Of a stretch of 43,906 bases of DNA, positions 7,377 to 43,035 are shown in pieces. Numbering within the stretch: the first letter of the stretch is position 1; each line of letters begins with the position of its first letter. Source of the DNA: Omnitrophica WOR_2 bacterium RIFCSPHIGHO2_02_FULL_50_17 (GTDB lineage Bacteria; Omnitrophota; Gorgyraeia; Zapsychrales; Zapsychraceae); the NCBI GenBank assembly GCA_001805645.1, contig MHGQ01000057.1:1-43906 (forward strand). Direction: 5' to 3'. The notes beneath the pieces are model-generated. The model worked only from the letters and a program-made list of their open reading frames with translations, was not told where the DNA came from and ran no database searches. A program made the translations under genes and the position numbers.

Positions 7377-7796
7377 CTATTTGATCCCTATAAACCGCCC
7401 TGAACCGGTTCGTGTCACACCCCCTATGGTCTGTATCAGACGAATCCAGCTTGTACCGTCACCTCCATCCACAGTAAGCCGCGTGGCTTGAATTGTATAA
7501 GCCGATACCGTCGCGCCCGAGATGGAGTAAGTGAAACGGGTCCCCGGGGCCGTGCTCGGATCATCTGTGTCAAGGTTAGCCATCGTACACCCCACATAAG
7601 TCCCCGATGAGCTGAGATAACATCTCTCCAGCGCCTGTCGAACGACACCCATGTTAGACAGGGCTTCCGAGCTCTTGGAAAACTCCACCGTTGAGAAAAA
7701 ACGCGGCAGGGCCAAACTGGCCAAAACCCCTACAATGATAATCACAATGATGACTTCAAGAAGTGTGAAACCGCTTTTGTTATTCCTGATATTCAT
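7377..7796 (-). CDS. Type IV pilin-like protein, first gene after the c-di-GMP riboswitch
   Basis: A 139-residue prepilin with leader MNIRNNKSG and helix FTLLEVIIVIIIVGVLASLA, a textbook N-methylation signal (Gly -1, Phe +1, Glu +5). Two cysteines, in LERCYLSS and YVGCTMA, lie close together. The ATG at 7796 follows AAGGAGAGGGAAA. It is the first coding region behind the riboswitch-terminator leader and is separated from later pilins by a strong hairpin, so it is the best candidate for the major pilin. The leader from 7797 to 7969 shows no other structure I can name. Confidence 0.88.
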   Translation of the reverse strand: MNIRNNKSGFTLLEVIIVIIIVGVLASLALPRFFSTVEFSKSSEALSNMGVVRQALERCYLSSSGTYVGCTMANLDTDDPSTAPGTRFTYSISGATVSAYTIQATRLTVDGGDGTSWIRLIQTIGGVTRTGSGRFIGIK

Positions 7797-7969: not shown

Positions 7970-8003
7970 AAAAAAAATGCCTATTCTACACCCGTAGAAT
8001 AGG
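7970..8003 (-). terminator. Intrinsic terminator of the riboswitch leader
   Basis: On the minus strand CCTATTCTAC-GGGT-GTAGAATAGG forms a perfect 10-bp stem with a 4-base loop, followed by CA and eight T residues. It lies 28 bases after the aptamer and 173 bases before the pilin ATG, as expected for a transcriptional expression platform. Confidence 0.88.
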
Positions 8004-8031
8004 CCACACATAACTTAACCGATTTATTATT

Positions 8032-8158
8032 GGCAGCTGGCTATCCTTTACAGGACCCTTCCCCGACGTTTCGCCTTTGGCGGAAGTCGGGGTCCCGACT
8101 TCCAGCTTCGCTGGAACGTCGGGATAGCTTTGTGTCCTACCCTTACGAGCAGTTTACC
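8032..8158 (-). promoter_or_regulatory. Class I cyclic-di-GMP (GEMM-I) riboswitch aptamer with enlarged P3
   Basis: On the minus strand GGTAAACTGCTCGTAAGGGTAGGACACAAAGC matches the GEMM-I core: AAAC, then helix CTGCTC/GGGTAG capped by the GNRA loop GTAA, then GACACAAAGC (consensus GACGCAAAGC). P3 is closed by GCTATCC (8128-8122) and GGATAGC (8046-8040), and the 3' side GGATAGCCAGCTGCC matches the consensus GGUAGCCGGGUUGCC. P1 pairs GGTA with TGCC. The base aligned with G20 of the Vibrio Vc2 aptamer is G, which favours c-di-GMP over cGAMP. P3 holds two extra hairpins at 8061-8123. Sequence between 8238 and 8379 shows nothing recognisable. Confidence 0.85.
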
Positions 8159-8208
8159 TTTTTCAATAACAAACTGTTATTGAAACTCAAATTGACTATT
8201 CTACGGAA

Positions 8209-8237
8209 TGTATAGCATATAAAAAGAGCGGTGTCAA
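8209..8237 (-). promoter_or_regulatory. Promoter of the riboswitch-pilin transcript
   Basis: On the minus strand: TTGACA, a 17-base spacer and TATACA, with a TG one base before the -10 hexamer (extended -10). The predicted start is near 8202. A hairpin CAATAAC-N5-GTTATTG (8164-8182) lies between the start and the aptamer. Confidence 0.8.
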
Positions 8238-8379: not shown

Positions 8380-9633
8380 CTACTCCGCCCCGCCGCCGCC
8401 ACCCCCCAATTGCGCGATATTAAACATCGGCAGGAACATGGCAACAAGAATAACACCGATCACGCCTCCCATGAACACGAGCATAAAAGGCTCAATAAGG
8501 GTACCGAACCGCTTCATAAACGTCTCAACGCTTGTTTGATAAAACTCCGCCACATGTTTGAGCATTTTGCTCAATTCCCCCGTCTCTTCACCCACCATAA
8601 TCATTTGAATGCACATCGGCGGGAAAAAGCCGCTTCTCTCCATGGGAGCCACGAGAAGCTCCCCCTCCTTCACGGCCTCCTTGATCTGTGCAATAATCAG
8701 CGAACACGTCGTATTGTCCACAAGCCGCTCGGCGATATCGAGCGCATACAAGATAGGCACACCGCTGTCAATAAGAATCGACATCTGTGAGGTGAAGCGT
8801 TCAATCACAATGCTCTGCAAGACCTCCCCAACCGTCGGAAGACTAAATAAAAATTTCTCAAAAGCCATTTTACCATGGTAGGTGCGGACATACCTTTTAA
8901 AAAGCCAAAAAGAGGCTATAGTCCCTCCGATAATAAGAGGGAATTGCGTCCGCATAATCTTGAATATCATCAAAAGCTGGGCCGTGATCCACGGCAGTTC
9001 GGCATTCATGGACGTAAAGATATCCTCAAATTTAGGCCCGACAAAGAGGGCAAAAAAAGCAATCGCTCCCATGGCCACAAAGAATAAAATGCAAGGATAT
9101 ATCAAGCTGGAAATAATGGTCGACCGGAAAGAAGCCTGCTGTTCAAGATAAAAAGACAGCCTATTGAGAATGATGGGAATCGTCCCTGAGGCCTCCCCCA
9201 CCTCCAAGAGGCTGACCCAAAACTGGTTAAAGATCTTCGGATAGTGAGAGAGCGCTACACTCAGCGAGCTTCCCTGCTCCACATTCTTCCTGATTTTTTG
9301 AACGACCTTGAAGAATTCCTCGCTCTCGACTTGAATCTCGATAACTCCCAGGCTTCGGATGAGAGGGACACCGGCCTCCAGCATAGTCGCAAGCTGCCGG
9401 GCGAAAGACAAGAGATCCTGAAGGCTGCTTTTTTTATGAGTGAATTTTTTTAGTTGAGGAGCAGTCTTGACTTCCTTTTTCTTCGAGACAGAAAGGGTAA
9501 GCTCTTTAATGCTTACGATGAAATAATTCTCTTTCTGGAGTTTCTGGACAACGGCTTCCTGGCTTGCCGCATCCATGACGTTTCGATAAGTCTTCCCGTC
9601 TTTATTTTTAACAACATAGGAAAATTTGGGCAA
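8380..9633 (-). CDS. pilC: Pilus assembly inner-membrane platform protein PilC (GspF family)
   Basis: A polytopic inner-membrane platform that couples the PilB motor to pilin polymerisation. It has 417 residues, the usual length. Two GspF domains are visible, roughly residues 65-190 (LLSFARQLATMLEAGVPLIRSL) and 265-390 (IERFTSQMSILIDSGVPILYAL), each followed by hydrophobic segments; the protein ends in a glycine run (GGGGGGAE). I chose the TTG at 9633, six bases after AAGGAG, giving the family-like start (M)PKFSYVVKNKDGK; the TTG at 9639 abuts the ribosome site. It lies 194 bases after pilB, across a repeat block. Confidence 0.92.
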   Translation of the reverse strand: MPKFSYVVKNKDGKTYRNVMDAASQEAVVQKLQKENYFIVSIKELTLSVSKKKEVKTAPQLKKFTHKKSSLQDLLSFARQLATMLEAGVPLIRSLGVIEIQVESEEFFKVVQKIRKNVEQGSSLSVALSHYPKIFNQFWVSLLEVGEASGTIPIILNRLSFYLEQQASFRSTIISSLIYPCILFFVAMGAIAFFALFVGPKFEDIFTSMNAELPWITAQLLMIFKIMRTQFPLIIGGTIASFWLFKRYVRTYHGKMAFEKFLFSLPTVGEVLQSIVIERFTSQMSILIDSGVPILYALDIAERLVDNTTCSLIIAQIKEAVKEGELLVAPMERSGFFPPMCIQMIMVGEETGELSKMLKHVAEFYQTSVETFMKRFGTLIEPFMLVFMGGVIGVILVAMFLPMFNIAQLGGGGGGAE

Positions 9634-9651
9634 ATCCAACTCCTTTTAGGA

Positions 9652-9827: not shown

Positions 9828-11570
9828 TCAGGCATCGACGCTTATACGGCAGATTTCGTCATAACTCGTGAATCCCTTCTCTACAAGACGAATGCCGGAT
9901 TCAAATATCGTTGACATGCCATTTTTCCGGGCACAATCTCTGATTTCGGTATGCGTGGCGCCTCTGGAGATCAGGGCGCGCATCTCGTCATCGATAAGCA
10001 TGACCTCCGCAACCACCATGCGTCCTTTGTAGCCCGAACCTTTACAGGCCTCACACCCCGCCGACTTGTAAATAAGATCGCTCTTGAAGATGACCCCCCC
10101 CTGCTGTTCGGGTACAGGCTCACAAGGCTCTTTGCATTTCTGGCAGAGGCGGCGCGCCAGGCGCTGACCCATGATCATGATTAACGAAGGCGTCAAAAGA
10201 TAATGGGGAATACCTATATCGATAAGCCGTGTAATCGCAGAGGCCGCATCATTGGTGTGCAGGGTGCTCAAGACAAAATGCCCCGTGAGGGCCGCCCGCA
10301 CACAAATCGATGCCGTCTCCAGATCGCGGATCTCGCCTACCATGATGACATCGGGATCCTGTCTTAAAAAAGCCCTCAGGGCCACCGCGAACGTCAGCCC
10401 GATTTCCGGTTTTACAGCCACTTGGTTGATTCCCTCGATCTTATACTCGACGGGGTCTTCGACGGTGATAATGTTCTTCGTAGGGTCAATCGTTTCATTC
10501 ACGGCGGCATAAAGGGTGGTGGATTTTCCGCTCCCCGTAGGTCCCGTAACAAAAAATAAACCATAAGGGGCACACAGGGCCTTGCGCAGCAATTCGACCT
10601 GTTTCGCATCGAACCCTAGATTGGATAACTCCAGAGGAACCGCTCCCTTATCCAATATACGCATGACGACCTTCTCCCCCCAGACCGTCGGGATCGTAGA
10701 AACACGCAAATCCACCGCCCGGTTCTCCAGCTTGGCAACAATGGCCCCGTCCTGAGGAAGGCGCTTCTCGGCGATATCAAGCTTGGCCAAAATTTTAATA
10801 CGCGACACGATAGGCAAATGAAGATGAGATGCCGGCGGAGGAATACTGTAAAGTTTCCCGTCAATACGATAACGCAAGGCAATCTTATTCTCAAAAGGCT
10901 CAATATGGATGTCGCTGGCCCGCTCATCAATGGCCTGACGAATAATCAAATCAACAAGTTTAATAACCGGGGCCTCCTCCGCCTTGGCAATCAATTTATC
11001 AAGGCTCAATTCCGCCGTATCTCCCTGTCCTTCTTTGGCCAGGGCAATGGCCCGGTCATCTTTCCCCTGCGTATAAGATTTTTCCACGGCCCGATCCAGC
11101 ATCGAGGAGCCTCCCTCTGCCCCTCCTTTCCTAAAATAAAAATCATTAATCGCCGCCTGGATAGCGGTCTGCGTCGCTATAACTAAGTTGATTTCACAGC
11201 CTGTGATTCTCTTGAGATTATCAAGGAGGAGAAGATCGAGGGGATCATTGACCGCGCAGGTCAATGAATTCATATGTTTGGATAAAGGCAGGACATGATT
11301 TTTCGCCGCGAAATCACTGGAAACCAATTGATCGAGATTTTGATCTAACCGCGGTCTTAATAATTCACTATTTTGGGAGGAATAGTAAGGAACGCCCATC
11401 TGCGTTCCCAGAGCCGCAATCATGTTTTCTTCCGTAATCATCCTCAACTTTATAAGAGTCTCCCCGATCCGGCCCTTGTCTTTTCTCTGAACCTCAATGG
11501 CCTCTTCAAGCTGCTTCTGTGTGATCAGCCCCTGCTTAACTAATATTTCTCCTAATTTTATATGGCCCAT
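9828..11570 (-). CDS. pilB: Pilus extension ATPase PilB with an MshEN c-di-GMP-binding domain
   Basis: A hexameric cytoplasmic ATPase that drives pilin assembly; 580 residues. Residues 5-28 (KLGEILVKQGLITQKQLEEA and on) and 34-57 (RIGETLIKLRMITEENMIAA and on) fit the 24-residue MshEN motif RLGxxLVxxGLIxxxxLxxxLxxQ, separated by exactly five residues; motif II has Arg43 in place of the glycine at motif position 10. The motor domain has Walker A GPTGSGKS (343-350), DVIMVGEIRD (about 407-416) and a zinc-binding set (CQKC and CEAC, about 476-509). The ATG at 11570 follows AGGAGA. MshEN is known to bind c-di-GMP in MshE and related ATPases; binding here is inferred. No PilT retraction ATPase is in the window. 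Confidence 0.94.
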   Translation of the reverse strand: MGHIKLGEILVKQGLITQKQLEEAIEVQRKDKGRIGETLIKLRMITEENMIAALGTQMGVPYYSSQNSELLRPRLDQNLDQLVSSDFAAKNHVLPLSKHMNSLTCAVNDPLDLLLLDNLKRITGCEINLVIATQTAIQAAINDFYFRKGGAEGGSSMLDRAVEKSYTQGKDDRAIALAKEGQGDTAELSLDKLIAKAEEAPVIKLVDLIIRQAIDERASDIHIEPFENKIALRYRIDGKLYSIPPPASHLHLPIVSRIKILAKLDIAEKRLPQDGAIVAKLENRAVDLRVSTIPTVWGEKVVMRILDKGAVPLELSNLGFDAKQVELLRKALCAPYGLFFVTGPTGSGKSTTLYAAVNETIDPTKNIITVEDPVEYKIEGINQVAVKPEIGLTFAVALRAFLRQDPDVIMVGEIRDLETASICVRAALTGHFVLSTLHTNDAASAITRLIDIGIPHYLLTPSLIMIMGQRLARRLCQKCKEPCEPVPEQQGGVIFKSDLIYKSAGCEACKGSGYKGRMVVAEVMLIDDEMRALISRGATHTEIRDCARKNGMSTIFESGIRLVEKGFTSYDEICRISVDA

Positions 11571-41856: not shown

Positions 41857-43035
41857 TTAAAGGAAGGTAAGAACGCGGTTATTCATCTCCTTGACGTCAA
41901 TTTTAGCGCTCGGCCTGCAAAGATAATATCCTTGTCCTGCATCAACGCCGAGACCCATGACGATTTTCAAGTCTTCTTTGTTCTCAATCCCTTCAGCGAT
42001 AGACAGAATATTGTTTTCTTGGCAAAACGCCACAATAAACTTAATAATGCTTCTTTTAAAAGGATCTTTGTTCAATTCATTGACAATATGCCGGTCAATT
42101 TTGACCACCTCGGGCTTAATCTCCACAATGGACTCCAGACTCGCATATCCTCCGCCGACATCATCCACGGCAAATTTAAAGCCATGCTCGCGGAAACAGC
42201 GCAGATATTCGTAGAATACCTTAAAGTCGGAAATAGCGGAGCGTTCGGTGATCTCCAATATCACATTGCCCACATTAAAAGAACTCTTTTCAAATAAAGT
42301 CTTGATCGCGGAAAATTGGGGGCCTTCTACCAGATAGGGACTGCAATTTAAGAATAACTTTTCCTCTTTCAGAAAAGACGAGGCACATTCAACAGCCTTT
42401 TTCCAAGAGAGCATCTCTAGGTCATGATAAAACCCGTAATGGATAGCCGCCTTAAAAAGCAAATCCGGACTCGAGAGCATAGTGTTGGTTTTTGGCCGCC
42501 CCAAGGCCTCGAAACCAAACAACTTGAACGGCTTCAAGAGAAAGATGGGCTGAAAAAACGGGTCGATGAGCCCCTCATCGATAATCCTTCTGATTTCGCA
42601 GATGACCGCTTTCTCTCCATTGACGAAGAGTCTGCCGTTTCTTAAGATTGGGCCTCTGCGCATCACGGCTTCCATACGCGCCACCAATTCTTCATATTCG
42701 AAAGGTTTAGTGAGGTAATCATCGGCGCCGAGATACAAAGCCTCCACGATATCCCCTGAAAGGAGTTTGGCGCTGAGAATGATGATGGGGATTTGCTTGG
42801 TGATCTGGTCATCTTTGAGTCTGCGGCAAACTTCAAAACCGCCTTTATCAGGCAGGATAAGGTCCAATAAAATAAGATCTGTTGTATCTGTAATTTTGTC
42901 AAAGGCTTCTTTGCCCGAGCGGGCGATACGCACTTCATACCCGCGGGTCTCAAGAAGCATGGTGAGCATTTGTGTCGCGGAAGGATCATCATCGACAAGC
43001 AGGATACTCTTGCGACTGTTCACTTTTTCTATCAT
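41857..43035 (-). CDS. Response regulator with EAL c-di-GMP phosphodiesterase domain
   Basis: 392 residues from the ATG at 43035, which lies six bases after GGAAGG (ATG 43041 is too close). Receiver domain, about 9-120: acidic pocket D15-D17, phosphorylation site D58 (LILLDLILPD), S88, K110 (YLTKPF). EAL domain, about 150-392: E176 in FEALGR, N230 in LFLNCSP, E261 in EITERS, D291-D292 in AVDDVGGGYAS, K312 in KIDR, E348/E351 in AEGIEN and Q368 in GQGYYLCRP. All catalytic metal and substrate positions are present, so it should be an active phosphodiesterase. No cognate histidine kinase is in the window. Confidence 0.92.
   Translation of the reverse strand: MIEKVNSRKSILLVDDDPSATQMLTMLLETRGYEVRIARSGKEAFDKITDTTDLILLDLILPDKGGFEVCRRLKDDQITKQIPIIILSAKLLSGDIVEALYLGADDYLTKPFEYEELVARMEAVMRRGPILRNGRLFVNGEKAVICEIRRIIDEGLIDPFFQPIFLLKPFKLFGFEALGRPKTNTMLSSPDLLFKAAIHYGFYHDLEMLSWKKAVECASSFLKEEKLFLNCSPYLVEGPQFSAIKTLFEKSSFNVGNVILEITERSAISDFKVFYEYLRCFREHGFKFAVDDVGGGYASLESIVEIKPEVVKIDRHIVNELNKDPFKRSIIKFIVAFCQENNILSIAEGIENKEDLKIVMGLGVDAGQGYYLCRPSAKIDVKEMNNRVLTFL

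What the first reader, a model, noticed from the sequence alone, without database searches (positions are those of the whole stretch)
9828..11570. PilB carries a c-di-GMP-binding MshEN domain, giving a second control level on the same pilus
Residues 5-28 and 34-57 fit the two 24-residue MshEN motifs at the canonical five-residue spacing; the second motif has Arg where Gly is usual. With the riboswitch on the pilin gene and a catalytically complete REC-EAL phosphodiesterase at 41857-43035, c-di-GMP could control both pilin synthesis and motor activity.
Basis: partly seen in the sequence, partly recalled or inferred. Interest (0 to 1): 0.72.

Follow-up and report, generated by a model that had tools for sequence, protein, structure and literature searches.

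The report
Pilus motor with c-di-GMP sensor domain
The motor protein that builds this bacterium's type IV pilus carries an intact-looking copy of a well-known sensor domain for the signal molecule c-di-GMP, and because the neighbouring pilin gene also has a c-di-GMP riboswitch, one signal probably controls the same pilus twice; the parts are known kinds and binding has not been tested.

Summary
Confirmed. The minus-strand ORF 11570-9828 (580 aa) is a PilB extension ATPase. Residues 5-57 match NCBIfam's c-di-GMP-binding MshE-related model over its full length (62.3 bits, cut-off 38); Pfam MshEN matches residues 69-145. An AlphaFold2 model of residues 1-150 (pLDDT 94) has V. cholerae MshE with c-di-GMP (5htl) as best PDB match. 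Both motifs align to 5htl without gaps: the four key Gly/Gln contacts (G7, Q28, G36, Q57) are present, hydrophobic contacts are identical or conservative, and Lys5 belongs to the extended consensus of high-affinity binders. Arg43 replaces a helix-turn Gly that does not touch ligand; it is private to this genome (Gly in 37 of 38 order-level sequences), but the site is non-Gly in 14 of 51 PilB-like proteins from elsewhere. The pilin riboswitch is real and G20-type; its true extent is 8025-8172. It lies in the pilC-pilin gap in 22 of 32 relatives. Eight of nine GGDEF domains in the genome carry the c-di-GMP-type Asp; the ninth is degenerate. Control of one pilus at two levels by c-di-GMP is the best reading. 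Binding, direction of effect, and any role of the distant REC-EAL protein are not shown. Interest moderate.

The parts
9828..11570 (-). pilB, 580-aa type IV pilus extension ATPase with N-terminal MshEN domain
   Evidence: PF00437 450.9 bits; TIGR02538 PilB 608 bits, below its strict equivalog cut-off of 675.65; best PDB sequence matches are PilB
11124..11570 (-). MshEN domain, residues 1-149
   Evidence: AF2 model pLDDT 94.1; best PDB fold match 5htl, E=5.4e-10
11487..11558 (-). c-di-GMP motif I, residues 5-28; contacts K5, L6, G7, L21, I25, Q28
   Evidence: NF053729; alignment to 5htl
11400..11471 (-). c-di-GMP motif II, residues 34-57; contacts R34, I35, G36, M50, L54, Q57
   Evidence: NF053729; alignment to 5htl
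11442..11444 (-). Arg43 codon AGG at the motif II helix turn (MshE G47)
   Evidence: Gly in 37 of 38 order-level sequences, non-Gly in 14 of 51 from elsewhere
8380..9639 (-). pilC, inner-membrane platform protein
   Evidence: PF00482 E=1e-54
8209..8237 (-). sigma-70-like promoter TTGACA-17-TATACA ahead of the riboswitch
   Evidence: position by script; similar in most relatives by inspection; not tested for function
8025..8172 (-). c-di-GMP-I (GEMM-I) riboswitch aptamer, G20 type, with about 60 extra bases in P3
   Evidence: lineage covariance model 63.5 bits, E=1.7e-10, window not in the training set; Rfam 42.2 bits; fold z=-6.6
7970..8005 (-). intrinsic terminator of the riboswitch leader
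   Evidence: hairpin of -17.7 kcal/mol followed by a T run; terminator in all 17 loci examined
7377..7796 (-). pilin gene controlled by the riboswitch
   Evidence: N_methyl E=2.2e-8
41857..43035 (-). REC-EAL protein, probable c-di-GMP phosphodiesterase; link to the pilus not shown
   Evidence: PF00563 E=5.5e-43, PF00072 E=6.3e-26; residues of the catalytic motifs E176, N230, E261/E264, D291/D292, K312, E348, Q368 present

Best explanation
Residues 1-149 of this PilB are a functional MshEN domain that binds one c-di-GMP per subunit, one motif per guanine. Backbone amides at G7/E8 and G36/E37 contact the Hoogsteen edges, Q28 and Q57 hold ribose and phosphate, K5 and R34 stack on one face of each base, and the clusters L21/I25/I35 and L6/M50/L54 pack on the other. 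Binding reorients the domain on the hexameric motor and promotes pilin polymerisation, as in V. cholerae MshE. The same messenger also acts through the c-di-GMP-I riboswitch on the pilin gene just downstream of pilC, so c-di-GMP sets both subunit supply and assembly. Arg43 is a tolerated turn substitution. Shown by computation: domain identity, contact residues, fold, conserved riboswitch position. Inferred: binding, affinity, sign of the effect on the motor, ON or OFF sense of the riboswitch.
For: NF053729 full-length hit; ungapped alignment to MshE with all four key Gly/Gln contacts kept; G7, Q28, G36, Q57 are 38 of 38 in order-level sequences, while each of the seven other MshEN-type ATPases read in this genome has lost at least one of them; AF2 model with 5htl as top match; Lys at motif position 1 goes with KD 6-53 nM (PMC11731258); MshEN mutants that do not bind lose pilus function in V. 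cholerae (PMC5013675); G20-type riboswitch in the pilC-pilin gap of 22 of 32 relatives; eight of nine GGDEF domains have the c-di-GMP-type Asp, none Ser/Thr.
Against: No binding data. Arg43, I25, I35 and M50 depart from the strict consensus and may weaken binding. NF053729 also passes its cut-off on L004, which lacks conserved Gly residues, so the family hit alone is not proof. Fold matches include XpsE, which has lost binding. [quoted passage not shown] perfringens PilB2 (PMC11656802), so the effect on the motor may be indirect.
Confidence: 0.75

Rival explanations
1. The domain keeps the MshEN fold but in this species no longer binds c-di-GMP usefully, because Arg43 disturbs motif II; it works only as a docking module for other pilus proteins, like the N-domains of X. 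citri PilB (binds PilZ) or XpsE.
For: Arg43 is private to this genome; N-domains of X. citri PilB and XpsE have the same fold; XpsE has lost binding through changes in key residues (PMC5013675).
Against: G47 is a turn residue, not a contact; the site is non-Gly in 14 of 51 PilB-like proteins; the key Gly/Gln contacts are all kept, unlike in XpsE; the turn region of the model has high confidence (block mean 96); a myxococcal PilB has Asn at the motif I turn and M. xanthus PilB is reported to bind.
Confidence: 0.12
2. The domain binds c-di-GMP so tightly that it is nearly always occupied; c-di-GMP is then a structural cofactor of PilB, and only the riboswitch is regulated.
For: Domains with Lys at motif position 1 bind at 6-53 nM (PMC11731258); the PilF authors raise this possibility for GSPII-B.
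Against: Affinity here is unmeasured, and I25, I35, M50 and R43 may lower it; in Thermus, weakening the site reduces twitching and adhesion; in V. cholerae, function follows affinity.
Confidence: 0.1

Closest known systems
Vibrio cholerae MshE (MshEN domain, PDB 5htl)
   Same: Same domain at the same place in a pilus extension ATPase; both motifs align without gaps; all four key Gly/Gln contacts shared
   Different: K5 for R9, I25 for L29, I35 for L39, M50 for L54, R43 for the turn Gly47; a different pilus type and no linked pilin riboswitch known to me
Thermus thermophilus PilF GSPII-B and GSPII-C
   Same: T4P motor with MshEN-type domains that bind c-di-GMP; Lys at motif I position 1 as in GSPII-B
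   Different: PilF has three such domains in a row; this PilB has one
Myxococcus xanthus PilB
   Same: Single MshEN domain reported to bind c-di-GMP (PMC11656802); the myxococcal PilB in 3jc8 has Ile at motif II position 2 and a non-Gly turn (Asn, motif I)
   Different: Its substituted turn is in motif I, not motif II
Clostridioides difficile pilA1 riboswitch Cdi-2-4
   Same: c-di-GMP riboswitch with a terminator ahead of a major pilin gene (PMC6366702)
   Different: Class II aptamer; the window has class I. The RNA there is an ON switch; the sense here is not known
Geobacter metallireducens pilM riboswitch
   Same: GEMM-I riboswitch on a pilus operon (PMC9262584)
   Different: That one senses cGAMP; the window aptamer has G at position 20 and no Ser/Thr-type GGDEF was found in the genome

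Membership tests
MshEN c-di-GMP-binding domain | Two 24-residue motifs with a 5-residue spacer | tested here: met
   NF053729 1-53 of 53, 62.3 bits; ungapped alignment to 5htl
MshEN c-di-GMP-binding domain | Polar contacts G11, Q32, G40, Q61 (MshE numbering) | tested here: met
   G7, Q28, G36, Q57; 38 of 38 in order-level sequences
MshEN c-di-GMP-binding domain | Stacking residue at motif position 1 (R, or K/L in the extended consensus) | tested here: met
   K5 and R34; extended consensus from PMC11731258
MshEN c-di-GMP-binding domain | Leu clusters L25/L29/L39 and L10/L54/L58 | tested here: met
   L21/I25/I35 and L6/M50/L54: three identical, three conservative
MshEN c-di-GMP-binding domain | Turn glycines G18 and G47 | tested here: not met
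   G14 kept, G47 is R43; structural, not a contact, and commonly replaced in PilB-like proteins; not a condition for membership
MshEN c-di-GMP-binding domain | Four-helix bundle plus alpha/beta subdomain fold | tested here: met
   AF2 model and Foldseek match to 5htl
MshEN c-di-GMP-binding domain | Binds c-di-GMP | not testable with these tools
   needs ITC or DRaCALA on purified domain
c-di-GMP-I (GEMM-I) riboswitch | Aptamer sequence and structure | tested here: met
   Rfam 42.2 bits over 35; lineage model 63.5 bits at 8025-8172
c-di-GMP-I (GEMM-I) riboswitch | G at position 20 (c-di-GMP rather than cGAMP type) | tested here: met
   G at RF01051 column 11; numbering from PMC7288161; the ligand itself not tested
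EAL c-di-GMP phosphodiesterase | Catalytic residues of the EAL, N, E..E, DD, K, E and Q motifs | tested here: met
   by motif position in P0002; activity not testable here

The most novel reading that the evidence does not exclude
In this lineage (probably Omnitrophota) c-di-GMP gates one pilus at two co-inherited points with different sensitivities: an RNA switch on the pilin gene and an MshEN site on the motor encoded just upstream. pilB(MshEN)-pilC-riboswitch-pilin would be a conserved feed-forward module; a similar order appears in a MAG labelled Actinomycetes.
Probability: 0.35. Interest if true: 0.55.

Novelty: new member of a known kind. Interest (0 to 1): 0.38.

Why it matters
MshEN motors and cyclic-dinucleotide riboswitches on pilus genes are each known, mostly from separate organisms. 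A cluster where both act on one pilus, kept across an order of uncultured bacteria, would be a clean system for asking whether one messenger sets subunit supply and motor activity at different thresholds. Arg43 is also a natural test of how much the motif II turn tolerates a charged residue.

Tried and rejected
(1) I first took the pilin riboswitch for the A20 (cGAMP) type; this was an off-by-one error in position 20. Numbering from PMC7288161 and the RF01051 alignment give G20, and the GGDEF residues agree. (2) ON or OFF sense from RNA energies: free fold with terminator -97.9, forced antiterminator -93.8, P1 with terminator -91.3, P1 with antiterminator -89.6 kcal/mol; these do not decide the sign. 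(3) Riboswitches near PilB in 80 loci from other genomes: only L101 and L061 gave hits beside the window, read by ORF inspection. (6) Papers by Kellenberger and Nelson on cGAMP riboswitches were not held; points about them come from later papers.

Full report
WHAT IS THERE. The ORF at 11570-9828 is on the minus strand and encodes a 580-residue PilB. Its C-terminal part is a T2SSE ATPase (PF00437, 450.9 bits), and solved PilB proteins are its best PDB sequence matches. It sits in a pil cluster read on the minus strand: pilM/N-like, pilO-like, pilP-like, pilQ, pilB, pilC, riboswitch, pilin, further pilin-like genes (the pilP-like label is by position and a weak T2SSB hit).

THE MOTIFS. NF053729, NCBI's model of the MshE-related c-di-GMP motif, matches residues 5-57 over all 53 positions with 62.3 bits (cut-off 38, E=2.6e-17). 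Pfam's MshEN model matches residues 69-145, the C-subdomain. The first 63 residues align to V. cholerae MshE (5htl) without a gap, offset 4: R9=K5, L10=L6, G11=G7, D12=E8, G18=G14, L25=L21, L29=I25, Q32=Q28, R38=R34, L39=I35, G40=G36, D41=E37, G47=R43, L54=M50, L58=L54, Q61=Q57. According to Wang et al. (PMC5013675) the ligand is held by the two Arg side chains, backbone amides of G11/G40 and the next residue, six Leu and two Gln. Of these twelve conserved positions eight are identical here and four are conservative. Lys at position 1 is part of the extended consensus (R/K/L)LG and goes with high affinity (6 nM in PilF GSPII-B, 13.5 nM in D. geothermalis PilB2, 53 nM in C. thermophilum PilB; PMC11731258).

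ARG43. G18 and G47 of MshE are needed for the helix-helix turns and are not described as ligand contacts. Arg43 is private: of 38 order-level PilB sequences, 37 have Gly. The codon is AGG, so one G-to-A change from GGG is plausible (inference), and an assembly error in this draft genome is not excluded. In 51 PilB-like proteins from other genomes, mostly of other phyla, the site is Gly 37 times, Lys 7, Glu 2, Asn 2, and Ser, Asp and Arg once each. The myxococcal PilB of 3jc8 has Asn at the corresponding turn of motif I, and M. xanthus PilB is reported to bind c-di-GMP (PMC11656802). Arg43 is therefore probably tolerated rather than a mark of a dead motif; its cost in affinity is unknown.

FOLD. 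An AlphaFold2 model of residues 1-150, with a 52-sequence alignment, has mean pLDDT 94.1 and helices 6-12, 18-31, 35-41, 47-58 followed by the alpha/beta subdomain. Its best PDB match is MshE with c-di-GMP (5htl, E=5.4e-10, TM 0.76/0.81). Thermus PilF GSPII-B with ligand follows, but so do X. citri PilB and XpsE N-domains, and XpsE has lost binding. Fold alone does not prove binding.

SELECTION ON THE SITE. G7, Q28, G36 and Q57 are 38 of 38 in the order-level sequences. The genome holds ten MshEN-like places. Read residue by residue, each of the seven other ATPases with such a domain has lost at least one of the four (for example His for Q32 in L002, Lys for G11 in L004), while two short stand-alone MshEN ORFs (L003, L006) keep them. 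L004 still passes the NF053729 cut-off, so a family hit is not by itself evidence of binding; the residue test is the better guide.

THE RIBOSWITCH. Rfam finds c-di-GMP-I at 8168-8098 minus (42.2 bits), but its 3' half is misplaced because the P3 arm is about 60 bases longer than usual. A covariance model built from eleven other aptamers (nine from relatives' pil clusters, two from elsewhere in this genome, the window's own left out) finds 8172-8025 with 63.5 bits, E=1.7e-10. Folding recovers the closing helix and the junction (z=-6.6). Position 20 is G, the c-di-GMP type: changing A to G there turned a cGAMP riboswitch into a c-di-GMP one (PMC6456294). In 32 relatives whose downstream region was fetched, 16 have a c-di-GMP-I-type aptamer over the Rfam cut-off between pilC and the pilin gene, and 6 more match the lineage model there (weak in Rfam). 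A terminator hairpin follows the aptamer in all 17 loci examined, and a TTGACA/TATAC-type promoter precedes most of them by inspection.

MESSENGER CONTEXT. The draft genome (1.92 Mb, 92.8% complete) has 9 GGDEF matches: eight have Asp at the substrate-selectivity site, the ninth is degenerate, and none has the Ser/Thr of cGAMP synthases (PMC6456294). It has 2 EAL, 4 HD_5 (HD-GYP-type) and 15 PilZ matches, 6 c-di-GMP-I-type riboswitches and three PilT-family proteins over cut-off. So c-di-GMP is the expected signal. The REC-EAL protein at 41857-43035 has the residues of the catalytic motifs but lies about 26 kb from the pil genes, and nothing found here ties it to the pilus.

MECHANISM. Best reading (0.75): c-di-GMP binds the PilB N-domain and promotes extension, and also sets pilin transcription through the riboswitch. 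Shown by computation: domain, residues, fold, conserved gene arrangement. Inferred from homologues: binding, direction of the effect on the motor, sense of the riboswitch. RNA energies did not decide the sense.

ORGANISM. The nearest named matches to PilB are mostly MAGs labelled Omnitrophota (60%, 56% and 53% identity; one of 55% is labelled Deltaproteobacteria), so the window probably comes from that phylum.

NOVELTY. Each part is a known kind: MshEN motors (V. cholerae, Thermus, Myxococcus, C. perfringens) and a c-di-GMP riboswitch on a pilin gene (C. difficile, class II; PMC6366702). The two literature searches did not turn up a paper describing both on one pilus in this lineage, but they cover open-licence papers only and titles and abstracts were read, not every text. 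A MAG labelled Actinomycetes (L101) has a pilC-riboswitch-pilin order after an MshEN-bearing PilB, and a MAG labelled Clostridiales (L061) has a hit just ahead of pilB, so the combination is not confined to this lineage.

Noticed in passing
window 8206-8196 and 8005-7970, minus strand: CCGTAGAATAG near the predicted start of the pilin leader RNA is complementary to the 5' arm of the terminator (CTATTCTACGG), a candidate antiterminator. A related GTAGAA-like word lies at a similar place in several relatives.
   Followed up: partly
window 8185-8161, minus strand: A hairpin TTTCAATAAC/GTTATTGAAA just upstream overlaps the 5' strand of aptamer helix P1 and would compete with it.
   Followed up: partly
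window 8168-8098 (Rfam hit): Rfam's c-di-GMP-I match ends about 70 bases too early because the P3 arm is extended; a lineage-trained model gives 8172-8025.
   Followed up: yes
L021 (G000:C52:17838-17980): One of the genome's six GEMM-I-type aptamers scores over the cut-off of the variant family c-di-GMP-I-GGC, RF03167; the gene it controls was not examined.
   Followed up: no
L010 and L167 (G000:C64:14042-16144): A 723-aa open frame appears to hold a weak MshEN match, an ATPase core and a PilZ domain together, a possible motor-PilZ fusion.
   Followed up: no
L003 and L006 (G000:C41:24325-28564): Two short ORFs (154 and 171 aa) with stand-alone MshEN motifs and intact Gly/Gln contacts lie beside ATPases whose own motifs are degenerate.
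   Followed up: partly
L101:14646-14746 and L061:9750-9810: Riboswitch hits beside MshEN-bearing pilB genes in MAGs labelled Actinomycetes (between pilC-like ORF and pilin) and Clostridiales (just ahead of pilB).
   Followed up: partly
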